Under the pieces are notes generated by a model that searched no databases, was not told the origin of the DNA, and saw only the letters and a program-made list of their open reading frames with translations. From positions 1,077,001-1,141,000 of the forward strand of contig NZ_CP147020.1 in the NCBI RefSeq assembly GCF_037126435.1: a DNA stretch of 64,000 nt. The letters run 5' to 3'. Below are positions 47,600 to 50,712 of this stretch, piece after piece. Position 1 is the first letter of the stretch. Each line of letters begins with the position of its first letter. Both the position numbers and the translations under genes were made by a program. The stretch comes from Bernardetia sp. ABR2-2B. Lineage in GTDB: Bacteria; Bacteroidota; Bacteroidia; Cytophagales; Bernardetiaceae.

Positions 47600-48199
47600 T
47601 TATTTTTTTAATTGAATTTCAGTATGGTTATCATAAGAATTATTTACATCAAGAAAATCATCTAAGATAATGGCTGTATATTTTTTTTCCTTCACAATAT
47701 TTTTTACCATTGAAAAAATATATTCTGTTCCAATAGGAGAAATACCCAGAAAGTTGAATACTACTACATCTGCTTTGCTAAAACAACTAAGAATAGAAAT
47801 AAATCGATGTAAATCAGTAGGTAACTTATTTACCTTAGTTTCAAGTAATTTTGATTTATCTAATTCAGAATTGTGATAAATAGTCTGTATATGTTCTTTA
47901 CCAACACGCTCTAAATTTATATTTCGTTCAAGATAGTTTTGTAGAGTTGGAGAAAAGATACCTCTAATGTACCCTATTCTTTCAAGTCCTGCTCCTGCAA
48001 AACAAACAGTCTTATAAATATTAACACTCTCACTCGTTTTTTGATTTAGAAAGATAGGAATAAGTTGTTCTAATATTTGCCAATAGTAACCACCTCCACG
48101 AATAAAAAAGTGATGTAAACTTCCTTCATTAACAGAAAAGGGAGGTAGATAAAACTTACCTAAGACTTGTATATCTTTAGTAGACTCTAAAACTTTCAT
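47600..48199 (-). CDS. Unknown gene inside the trp operon, ABC-ATPase-like relic
   Basis: A 199-residue protein with no recognised function, between trpG (11 nt) and trpD (4 nt). Its layout is that of a small ABC ATPase of a type seen in Bacteroidota, but all key residues differ. RGGGYYWQILEQLIPIFLN stands where Walker A would be, LPTDLHR where the LSGGxxR signature is expected, ADVVVFNFLGISPIGTEYIF at the Walker B and D-loop, and IILDDFLDV where the switch-His region normally reads LITDHxYR. The alignment is by eye. It might bind a nucleotide-like ligand without hydrolysis, or have drifted to a new role. The frame is intact. Confidence 0.7.
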   Translation of the reverse strand: MKVLESTKDIQVLGKFYLPPFSVNEGSLHHFFIRGGGYYWQILEQLIPIFLNQKTSESVNIYKTVCFAGAGLERIGYIRGIFSPTLQNYLERNINLERVGKEHIQTIYHNSELDKSKLLETKVNKLPTDLHRFISILSCFSKADVVVFNFLGISPIGTEYIFSMVKNIVKEKKYTAIILDDFLDVNNSYDNHTEIQLKK

Positions 48200-48960: not shown

Positions 48961-50373
48961 CTATATGACGATTTCTTCTGCTAGTTTTAGAGCTTTTCTG
49001 AGAGCTGCTAATTTGTTTCCTACCTCGGCAAGTTCGTTTTCAGGAACAGAACCTTCTACTACTCCTGCACCTGCTTGGAAATAAAGTGAATTTTCTTTGC
49101 TCAAAAATGAGCGTATCATTATGGCGTGATTGTAATCTCCATTGAAACCAATAAAACCAACAGCACCACCATAATAACTACGGTTTTCGGGTTCATATTT
49201 ATGAATAAGAGAAAGAGCATTTGGTTTTGGAGAACCTGAAAGCGTACCTGCTGGGAACGTATCGGCAGCAATCTGCAAAGGAGAAACCTCTGGCAAAAGT
49301 TGCCCACTTACTTCGGAAACCAAATGAATAACGTGAGAGAAATATTGTACTTCTCTGAAAACATCGACATTTATGTTTGTTCCGTTTCTACTCAAATCAT
49401 TTCTTGCCAAATCTACAAGCATAACATGTTCGGCATTTTCTTTTGGGTCATTTTGAAGCTGGACAGCTAAAGCAGCATCAGCAGAATCATTTCCTGTTCG
49501 TTTGAAAGTTCCTGCAATCGGATGGATAGTTGCTTTTCTATTTTTTACTACAAGTTGCGCCTCTGGAGAAGAACCCATTAACTTAAAACTCCCATAGTCA
49601 AAATAAAACAAATATGGCGAAGGGTTTACGCTACGCAAAGCACGATAAACATTAAAATCATCACCTTCAAAGTCTTGTTTGTAACGTCTTGAGAGAACAA
49701 TTTGGAATACATCGCCACGCTTACAGTGCGAAATTCCGTGTCCTACATTATCCAAAAAGTCTTCGTCTGTCATATTTGAAGTTTCAGAACCCTCTGTTTT
49801 GAAAGAATAGGTTGGTGCGTTTTTGTTTTGCAAAACATCTAATACTTTCTTGAAAGTAGGTTCATTTCCGTTTTCACTTTCCAACTGATGTTCAAAAATA
49901 TGTAGTTCATTTTTGAAGTGATTGATAGCAATTACATACTTGAAAACGTGATACTGAACCAGAGGAATTTTGATTTTTTCCGTTTTTGGTGCATCTATTT
50001 TCTCAAAATACTTAACAGCATCATAAGTAGTATAACCAAAAAGTCCGTTTGTAATAAAGTTGAGTTTACTTTTTTCAGCTTTAAAACATTTTGAAAACTT
50101 TGTCAAAGATTCTGTTACTTCTGATGGATTTTCAATGACTTTCTCTGTGCTGCTTCCATCAGGAAAGGATTGATAAATCGTTTCGTTTTCTACTTTGAAA
50201 TTCGCTATCGGCTCACAACAGATATACGTAAAGGCATTTTGATTGCCATGATAATCTGAAGATTCCAACAAAAAACTCATTGGATATTTATCTCTTAGTT
50301 TGAGATAAATTCCGACAGGTGTAAGCGTGTCAGCTAAGATTTTTTGGGTAAAGGTTTTTAGTTTGAAATTCAT
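48961..50373 (-). CDS. trpE: Anthranilate synthase component I
   Basis: Converts chorismate to anthranilate with ammonia from TrpG. From ATG 50373 (MNFKLKTFTQKILADTLTP) it has 470 residues; the open frame reaches a TTG at 50409, but that stretch lies in a palindromic repeat and adds a poor N-terminus. The feedback motif MSFLLESSDYHG (LLES, near residue 32) binds tryptophan in known enzymes. The chorismate-binding domain shows FQIVLSRRYKQDF, PIAGTFKRTG, LVDLARNDLSRNG, PAGTLSGSPKPNAL and FQAGAGVVEGSVPENE. It is first in the structural operon and is preceded by the trp attenuator. Confidence 0.97.
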   Translation of the reverse strand: MNFKLKTFTQKILADTLTPVGIYLKLRDKYPMSFLLESSDYHGNQNAFTYICCEPIANFKVENETIYQSFPDGSSTEKVIENPSEVTESLTKFSKCFKAEKSKLNFITNGLFGYTTYDAVKYFEKIDAPKTEKIKIPLVQYHVFKYVIAINHFKNELHIFEHQLESENGNEPTFKKVLDVLQNKNAPTYSFKTEGSETSNMTDEDFLDNVGHGISHCKRGDVFQIVLSRRYKQDFEGDDFNVYRALRSVNPSPYLFYFDYGSFKLMGSSPEAQLVVKNRKATIHPIAGTFKRTGNDSADAALAVQLQNDPKENAEHVMLVDLARNDLSRNGTNINVDVFREVQYFSHVIHLVSEVSGQLLPEVSPLQIAADTFPAGTLSGSPKPNALSLIHKYEPENRSYYGGAVGFIGFNGDYNHAIMIRSFLSKENSLYFQAGAGVVEGSVPENELAEVGNKLAALRKALKLAEEIVI

Positions 50374-50444: not shown

Positions 50445-50482
50445 AAAAAAAAGACTTATCACTTTTTTGCGATAAGTCTTTT
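50445..50482 (-). terminator. Attenuator terminator of the trp operon
   Basis: On the minus strand AAAAGACTTATC pairs perfectly with GATAAGTCTTTT across the 10-nt loop GCAAAAAAGT, then eight T residues in all follow at once. This is a textbook intrinsic terminator, 72 nt before trpE and 53 nt after the leader-peptide stop. There is no upstream gene for it to serve except the leader. Confidence 0.93.
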
Positions 50483-50585
50483 GTATATAAATCAAAGATA
50501 TAATTTTCTGTATTTTCCTAGTTATTTATTAGGTTCAGAATGCACACGACTTATCGCCTATATCTTTGATATAGTGCCACCACCA
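50469..50585 (-). promoter_or_regulatory. trp attenuator: antiterminator and protector pairings
   Basis: Segment B, GCGATAAGTC (50557-50548), can form a perfect 10-bp duplex with GACTTATCGC (50478-50469), which is the 5' arm and loop edge of the terminator; that pairing prevents termination. Segment A, ATCAAAGATATA (50570-50559), pairs perfectly over 12 bp with TATATCTTTGAT (50502-50491). The A and B pairings cross, so they exclude each other in a simple fold. A begins 6 nt after the last Trp codon and would be covered by a ribosome stalled there; B would be covered by a ribosome at the stop codon. The logic therefore matches Trp-dependent attenuation. Confidence 0.88.
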
Positions 50586-50639
50586 TGCAGAGTTTGCAGA
50601 AGTAGATAGATAAGTAATATTTAAAATTGTATTTGTCAT
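50535..50639 (-). CDS. trpL: trp operon leader peptide with three consecutive Trp codons
   Basis: A 34-residue open frame, ATG at 50639-50637, TGA at 50537-50535. The peptide runs from MTNTILNITYLSTS to a core SAWWWHYIKDIGDK and ends SCAF. The three TGG codons occupy 50585-50577. It is too short for normal gene finding, and no other product is expected from this region. It starts about 36 nt after the predicted transcription start, is followed 53 nt later by an intrinsic terminator, and lies upstream of trpE. Shortage of charged tRNA-Trp would stall ribosomes at the triplet. Three tandem regulatory codons in a random 34-codon frame directly before trpE are very unlikely by chance. Confidence 0.92.
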   Translation of the reverse strand: MTNTILNITYLSTSANSAWWWHYIKDIGDKSCAF

Positions 50640-50681
50640 TCTGTTTGTAAGACTTTTTTGTTGTGTTATTTTGTCTATACA

Positions 50682-50712
50682 CAAATCTACAAAAGTTTTT
50701 TGAGTTTACAAG
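50682..50712 (-). promoter_or_regulatory. trp operon promoter
   Basis: The minus strand carries CTTG at the -33 position (50712-50709), a 19-nt spacer, and TAGATTTG (50689-50682), an exact TAnnTTTG box. The predicted start of transcription is near 50675. The surrounding gap 50640-50959 holds nothing else I can name apart from the upstream region of the divergent protease gene. Confidence 0.75.

What the first reader, a model, noticed from the sequence alone, without database searches (positions are those of the whole stretch)
50445..50712. Complete ribosome-mediated trp attenuator with a WWW leader peptide in a Bacteroidota trp operon
Seen directly: consensus promoter, a 34-codon leader frame with TGG-TGG-TGG, an intrinsic terminator with eight Ts, then trpE. 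Established: this arrangement controls trp operons of enterobacteria by Trp-tRNA-dependent ribosome stalling. Inference: the same logic arose or persists here, in a phylum with weak Shine-Dalgarno use and its own sigma factor. The leader is too short to appear in normal annotation. I cannot say whether a comparative survey has already listed it.
Basis: partly seen in the sequence, partly recalled or inferred. Interest (0 to 1): 0.93.

Follow-up and report, generated by a model that had tools for sequence, protein, structure and literature searches.

The report
Bacteroidota tryptophan-operon leader-peptide attenuator
Ahead of the tryptophan-making genes lies a tiny reading frame with three tryptophan codons and a switchable transcription stop signal, an example of a control device that Rfam already lists for this phylum, but which its model overlooks here and in many related bacteria.

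Summary
On the minus strand: a Bacteroidota-type promoter (TTG-N19-TAGATTTG), a 34-codon leader MTNTILNITYLSTSANSAWWWHYIKDIGDKSCAF, an intrinsic terminator with eight Ts, then trpE. A perfect 10-bp antiterminator pairing (GCGATAAGTC with GACTTATCGC) begins 19 nt beyond the Trp codons. The WWW-to-region-2 segment, both terminator arms and one extra element are nearly invariant in seven congeneric genomes, window included. Of 253 Bacteroidota trpE upstream regions, 210 have a Trp-Trp ORF followed by a terminator. WWW plus terminator occurs in 167 of 252 on the trpE strand and 0 of 252 on the other. Across 95 dissimilar leaders, own arms pair better than swapped or shuffled ones, though only 42 of 95 are individually significant. 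Ribosome-mediated trp attenuation is the best explanation; no expression data were available. It is not a new kind: Rfam RF01692 'Bacteroid-trp' (Weinberg 2010) already names it. That model misses this locus (23.6 bits, cut-off 49, out of register) and passes its cut-off in 5 of 148 genomes of the order. Possibly new is a genus-specific third helix that may act as an anti-antiterminator.

The parts
50709..50711 (-). -33 TTG of a Bacteroidota-type promoter
   Evidence: sequence; TTG in 6 of 7 aligned genus sequences; TTG-N16..22-TAnnTTTG upstream of the leader in 119 of 200 leaders against 5 of 200 reversed controls
50682..50689 (-). -7 element TAGATTTG (TAnnTTTG); transcript start predicted near 50676
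   Evidence: TAnnTTTG in 7 of 7 genus sequences; start site inferred
50535..50639 (-). leader peptide ORF, 34 codons plus stop
   Evidence: translation; conserved in 7 of 7 genus sequences
50577..50585 (-). three Trp codons TGGTGGTGG (codons 19-21)
50609..50615 (-). possible upstream arm ACTTATC (codons 9-11), pairs with region 2 in the ribosome-free fold
   Evidence: MFE fold, duplex -7.3 kcal/mol; altered in L087 and by one base in L088
50560..50570 (-). A1 ATCAAAGATAT (codons 24-27): part of a self-hairpin, or pairs with B1
   Evidence: invariant in 7 of 7 genus sequences
50548..50557 (-). region 2 (A2) GCGATAAGTC (codons 28-31): antiterminator 5' arm, separated by 19 nt from the Trp codons
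50491..50501 (-). B1 ATATCTTTGAT: non-coding invariant element complementary to A1
   Evidence: invariant in 7 of 7, downstream of a variable spacer; A1:B1 -12.7 kcal/mol
50469..50478 (-). region 3 (B2) GACTTATCGC: terminator 5' arm and antiterminator 3' arm
   Evidence: A2:B2 -16.9 kcal/mol
50449..50482 (-). intrinsic terminator hairpin (regions 3:4), -16.7 kcal/mol
50445..50452 (-). eight-T tract (overlaps the outer A:T pairs of the scanned stem)
48961..50373 (-). trpE, anthranilate synthase component I
   Evidence: Pfam PF00425 and PF04715
48211..48831 (-). trpG, glutamine amidotransferase
   Evidence: Pfam PF00117
46576..47595 (-). trpD
   Evidence: Pfam PF00591 and PF02885
45700..46497 (-). 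trpC
   Evidence: Pfam PF00218

Best explanation
A ribosome-mediated transcription attenuator of the trpE-G-(unknown)-D-C operon. Transcription starts near 50676 and a ribosome translates the leader. With little Trp-tRNA it stalls at Trp codons 19-21, leaving region 2 (50557-50548) free to pair with region 3 (50478-50469); this antiterminator prevents the terminator and RNA polymerase reads into trpE. With ample Trp the ribosome runs on to the stop codon at 50537-50535 and covers or crowds region 2, so regions 3:4 form the terminator and transcription ends at the T tract 50452-50445. Shown here: the elements, their complementarity, positions and conservation. Inferred: start site, stalling, Trp response, coupling of transcription and translation.
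For: Anatomy. In seven genus sequences the WWW-to-region-2 segment, B1 and both terminator arms hardly vary. From WWW to the stop, codons for a shared amino acid differ from the window's in 0, 0, 0, 1, 0 and 0 cases (of 12-14), against 31-50 differing in the first 150 codons of trpE, compared without gaps. Post-stall nascent RNA has 2:3 as its MFE pairing, -20.1 kcal/mol. Trp-Trp ORF plus terminator in 210 of 253 trpE upstream regions; strand control 167 against 0 of 252 for WWW. Region 2 against own region 3 in 95 dissimilar leaders: -1117.2 kcal/mol summed, against -818.1 +/- 23.8 swapped (0 of 20,000), -736.4 +/- 22.6 shuffled (0 of 500) and -824.0 for the segment reversed. Pairing peaks in 16-nt windows starting 16 nt after the Trp codons. 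All 7 RF01692 matches in the order sample overlap leaders found by the independent scan.
Against: No expression data. Individually only 42 of 95 leaders reach p<=0.05 for 2:3 pairing; in the mainly flavobacterial named group only 8 of 74 do by the earlier test. 26 of 95 reach p<=0.05 for a hairpin just after the Trp codons. 43 of 253 trpE upstream regions lack the pattern within 600 nt. No covariation can be scored inside the genus because the arms do not vary. The ribosome-free fold uses an upstream arm that is not fully kept in L087 and L088.
Confidence: 0.92

Rival explanations
1. A constitutive premature terminator with a chance WWW ORF: no Trp sensing.
For: TGGTGGTGG occurs 157 times in the genome; the terminator stands on its own.
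Against: WWW plus terminator recurs upstream of trpE on one strand only; region 2 fits its own region 3; divergent upstream gene.
Confidence: 0.03
2. A Trp sensor that does not use codon stalling: nascent peptide plus free Trp (TnaC-like), a T-box, or a protein (TRAP-like) acting on the same terminator.
For: The leader sequence is strongly conserved within the genus.
Against: No Rfam family, T-box included, reaches its cut-off in the window. Outside the Trp run the peptides differ widely between families. TRAP sites were not tested.
Confidence: 0.04
3. Same attenuator, but in this genus the extra helix A1:B1 is part of a three-state switch: formed when the ribosome has left codons 24-27, it excludes region 2:3 and favours termination; a ribosome stalled at the Trp codons keeps it open.
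For: Perfect 11-bp A1:B1; B1 is non-coding and invariant in 7 of 7 next to a spacer with indels; the full post-stall RNA folds with A1:B1 plus terminator, -33.7 kcal/mol.
Against: Not general: in 95 leaders such pairing is weaker than shuffled overall (-386 against -436) and only L001 and L151 reach p<=0.01. A1 starts about 18 nt from the P-site when the first Trp codon is in the A-site, so the stalled ribosome may not cover it.
Confidence: 0.35

Closest known systems
Bacteroid-trp RNA, Rfam RF01692 (Weinberg 2010, PMC2864571 Table 1; also named for F. psychrophilum in a passage of PMC6414381)
   Same: Phylum, position upstream of trp genes, Trp-codon leader, hairpin after the Trp codons, terminator 5' arm at the end of the model (alignments).
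   Different: The window's RNA scores 23.6 bits (cut-off 49) and the match is out of register (50533-50471, past the leader ORF). Different arm sequences, a 34-codon leader, and the extra B1 element.
Enterobacterial trp leader (trpL attenuator, Rfam RF00513)
   Same: Tandem Trp codons, 2:3 antiterminator against 3:4 terminator, region 2 just beyond the stalled ribosome (E. coli details recalled).
   Different: No Rfam match; Bacteroidota promoter; by eye no Shine-Dalgarno-like sequence before the leader ATG (AAACAGAATGA); three Trp codons in place of two (recalled).
Leader-peptide attenuation reported for amino-acid operons in Flavobacterium psychrophilum (Guerin 2021, PMC9723704, section 19)
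   Same: Same phylum, same proposed mechanism, from mapped 5' transcribed regions.
   Different: The section read names pheA and hisG among elements conserved in the family, not trp; its supplementary tables were not read.

Membership tests
Ribosome-mediated trp attenuator (functional class) | Short leader ORF with tandem Trp codons before trpE | tested here: met
Ribosome-mediated trp attenuator (functional class) | Intrinsic terminator between leader and first structural gene | tested here: met
Ribosome-mediated trp attenuator (functional class) | Mutually exclusive antiterminator whose arm lies just past the Trp codons | tested here: met
   complementarity and position; use in the cell not tested
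Ribosome-mediated trp attenuator (functional class) | Trp-tRNA-dependent readthrough in vivo | not testable with these tools
   needs RNA or reporter work
Rfam RF01692 Bacteroid-trp | Covariance score at or above the gathering cut-off (49 bits) | tested here: not met
   23.6 bits, out of register; no match in own genome (run with stricter filters)
Rfam RF01692 Bacteroid-trp | Trp-codon leader upstream of trp genes in Bacteroidota | tested here: met
   phylum inferred from L004 and other named relatives
T-box (RF00230) | Covariance match | tested here: not met
   no family at gathering in the window
TRAP-regulated trp leader | Row of (G/U)AG repeats and a TRAP gene | not tested
   -

The most novel reading that the evidence does not exclude
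Tandem-Trp attenuation is an ancestral, nearly universal control of trpE in Bacteroidota, which implies working transcription-translation coupling across a phylum that rarely uses Shine-Dalgarno leaders. In the window's genus it has gained a third helix (A1:B1) that acts as an anti-antiterminator by pairing codons just past the stall site with a downstream non-coding element.
Probability: 0.3. Interest if true: 0.6.

Novelty: new member of a known kind. Interest (0 to 1): 0.4.

Why it matters
Attenuation by stalled ribosomes only works if a ribosome follows RNA polymerase closely. Matching arms at a fixed distance from the Trp codons across Bacteroidota are indirect evidence that such coupling is used in a phylum that rarely uses Shine-Dalgarno sites (recalled). 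The locus gives a small, genetically testable reporter of that question. It also shows that the Rfam model detects only a fraction of a widespread element and could be rebuilt.

Tried and rejected
A His leader elsewhere in the genome: a five-His ORF (L301) was followed up and rejected. It is an out-of-frame reading of a proline-rich stretch in a longer ORF (TonB-like by eye), with no terminator reported in the 500 nt scanned. Upstream of hisG itself no ORF with two adjacent His codons was found. The one hairpin there, reported on the minus strand at L303 1280-1240, is nearly symmetrical and lies just after the end of the preceding same-strand ORF, so it is probably that gene's terminator. A second Trp leader before the separate trpB: the WW ORFs seen lie inside the gene, none in the roughly 1.4 kb held upstream.

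A general A1:B1 helix throughout the phylum: rejected. Rfam matches below cut-off other than RF01692 were taken as chance. Coexistence of A1:B1 and A2:B2 as a pseudoknot was not modelled; the 2-nt connection makes it doubtful.

A cross-family covariance model was not built, because spacers and arm sequences differ too much; swap and shuffle tests were used in its place.

Full report
What is there. The window lies at 1,077,001-1,141,000 of contig C1 of a 5.4-Mb genome. The nearest named record is the MAG 'Flexibacter sp. CG_4_10_14_3_um_filter_32_15' (L004, 96% identical TrpE). The genome's order is unnamed in the tools; I take it as Cytophagales because L004 is so labelled and because a genome of the same order (G054, L108) shares its trpE upstream sequence with Thermoflexibacter ruber (L026). 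The minus strand reads trpE, trpG, an unknown gene, trpD, trpC. Upstream of trpE are TTG-N19-TAGATTTG, a 34-codon ORF with TGGTGGTGG, and a terminator with eight Ts. The promoter fits the Bacteroidota consensus (recalled). The arrangement TTG-N16..22-TAnnTTTG lies upstream of 119 of 200 leaders, against 5 of 200 in reversed sequence (8 of the 208 leaders had too little upstream DNA).

The arms. Region 2, GCGATAAGTC in codons 28-31, is the perfect complement of GACTTATCGC in the terminator's 5' arm (duplex -16.9 kcal/mol; terminator hairpin -16.7). With RNA exposed as if a ribosome were stalled at the Trp codons and the 3' arm not yet made, the minimum-energy structure is this antiterminator (-20.1 kcal/mol). 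With the full post-stall RNA, the best nested structure is the terminator plus a second helix, A1:B1 (-33.7 kcal/mol). Without a ribosome, region 2 pairs with an upstream arm, ACTTATC, in codons 9-11.

Conservation in the genus. Seven sequences (window, L004, L085-L089) were aligned. The segment from WWW through codon 31, the B1 element and both terminator arms are nearly invariant (codon 22 differs in L087). The spacer between leader stop and B1 varies with insertions. In the codons from WWW to the stop, synonymous differences from the window number 0, 0, 0, 1, 0, 0 (of 12-14 compared), against 31-50 codons in the first 150 of trpE (ungapped, so an indel may inflate the value of 50 for L087). 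This supports constraint on the RNA and not only on the peptide. It also means that no covariation can be read inside the genus.

Conservation in the phylum. One locus (L101) was dropped because the script could not place its frame, and five as duplicates, leaving 253. An ORF of at most 100 aa with at least two adjacent Trp codons, followed within 250 nt by a terminator, was found in 6 of 6 genus, 74 of 79 named, 73 of 101 order, 42 of 45 class and 15 of 22 phylum loci, 210 of 253 in all. With a stricter definition, 167 of 252 regions have WWW plus a terminator on the trpE strand and 0 of 252 on the reverse strand; the next most frequent triple run is Leu with 19 of 252. The 43 misses (listed) include contigs with little upstream DNA (L164), and at least one leader further away: G376 has an RF01692 match about 1.3 kb upstream of trpE, where my 600-nt scan of L235 found none.

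Do the arms match each other? For 208 leaders I measured pairing of the RNA after the Trp codons with the terminator 5' arm and loop. The printed start of region 2 (which counts one flanking base) has a median of 17-20 nt after the last Trp codon in each of the five groups. Counting leaders with p<=0.05 against shuffles, this test gave 6 of 6, 8 of 74, 37 of 72, 10 of 42 and 6 of 14 for genus, named, order, class and phylum. In 95 leaders with pairwise similarity ratio below 0.8, the own-pair energies sum to -1117.2 kcal/mol; swapped among leaders they average -818.1 (sd 23.8, 0 of 20,000 as low), with the leader segment shuffled -736.4 (sd 22.6, 0 of 500), and reversed -824.0. Swaps alone could reflect shared base composition; shuffles exclude that. 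Relatedness among the 95 is reduced, not removed. Individually 42 of 95 reach p<=0.05. Typical pairs, read by eye, are GTGAACAGC with GCTGTTCAC in Cytophagales and GTGA...AAGYC with GGCTTGTCATCAC in flavobacteria. Another genus of the family (L210) has GACGAGTA against TACTCGTC, so both arms changed and still pair.

The third helix. A1 (ATCAAAGATAT, codons 24-27) and B1 (ATATCTTTGAT) are perfectly complementary and invariant in the genus. Over 95 leaders such pairing is not stronger than shuffled (own sum -386 against -436), and only L001 and L151 reach p<=0.01, about what chance allows for one of them. I read it as a genus-level addition that may block region 2:3 when no ribosome sits on A1. 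This is inference.

What is known. RF01692 (Bacteroid-trp, 'Bacteroidete tryptophan peptide leader RNA' in Rfam) goes back to Weinberg 2010 (passages incl. Table 1 seen, supplements not read). A passage of PMC6414381 compares it with the E. coli trp leader and places it before the F. psychrophilum trp operon. Guerin 2021 (section 19 read) reports clues for leader-peptide attenuation at amino-acid operons in the same species. Passages of PMC7366714 mention sORFs in long 5' UTRs of B. thetaiotaomicron reminiscent of attenuation leaders, without trp. [quoted passage not shown] Passages of PMC4833913, PMC2395257, PMC6429828 and PMC3766115 showed no Bacteroidota trp leader. Vitreschak 2004 was not held; I recall that its abstract mentions Bacteroidetes/Chlorobi. 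RF01692 passes its cut-off in 24 of 247 phylum genomes, all 24 in the same class as the window but outside its order, and in 5 of 148 order genomes, none of the 7 of the window's genus or the 4 others of its family (both runs used stricter filters that lose weak matches). All 7 order matches (2 below cut-off) overlap leaders I had found independently. So the kind is known and its recorded range is too narrow. My ten literature searches listed no paper whose title or abstract describes the Cytophagales leaders, which is weak evidence since the library is partial.

Verdict. An ordinary-logic but well-conserved trp attenuator; a new member of a known kind that the current covariance model misses.

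Noticed in passing
window 47600-48199 (-): A 199-aa gene between trpG and trpD has no Pfam match. Of the six other genus genomes only G037 has a relative (33% identity), about 1.6 kb downstream of its trpE; one weak match in G004 among 29 relatives searched. A fast-evolving or recently inserted trp-operon gene.
   Followed up: partly
L019 and L041, about 160 to 80 nt upstream of trpE: Leaders with alternating aromatics (GFWFWYWHL in L019, GFWFWYWYL in L041), each followed by a terminator, in place of a Trp run: possibly sensing Trp, Phe and Tyr together. Both records are labelled as Thalassovita/Thalassobius (alphaproteobacteria, recalled), probably mislabelled MAGs.
   Followed up: no
L202, L203, L205, L206, L209, L211, L212: Small genomes of one family (f7, 1.2-1.6 Mb) keep a minimal 14-codon leader with two Trp codons and a terminator close to trpE.
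   Followed up: no
L038, L040, L051, L052, L054, L059, L067: In several Allomuricauda/Flagellimonas-type loci the leader starts about 490 nt and the terminator ends about 380 nt upstream of the trpE match, leaving an unexplained gap.
   Followed up: no
L303 (own genome, hisG): No ORF with adjacent His codons lies upstream of hisG, so no his attenuator of the same type is visible in this genome, although Guerin 2021 lists a structured hisG leader in flavobacteria.
   Followed up: yes
G376 (L235, L295): An RF01692 match lies about 1.3 kb upstream of trpE rather than directly before it, so another gene probably leads that trp operon.
   Followed up: no
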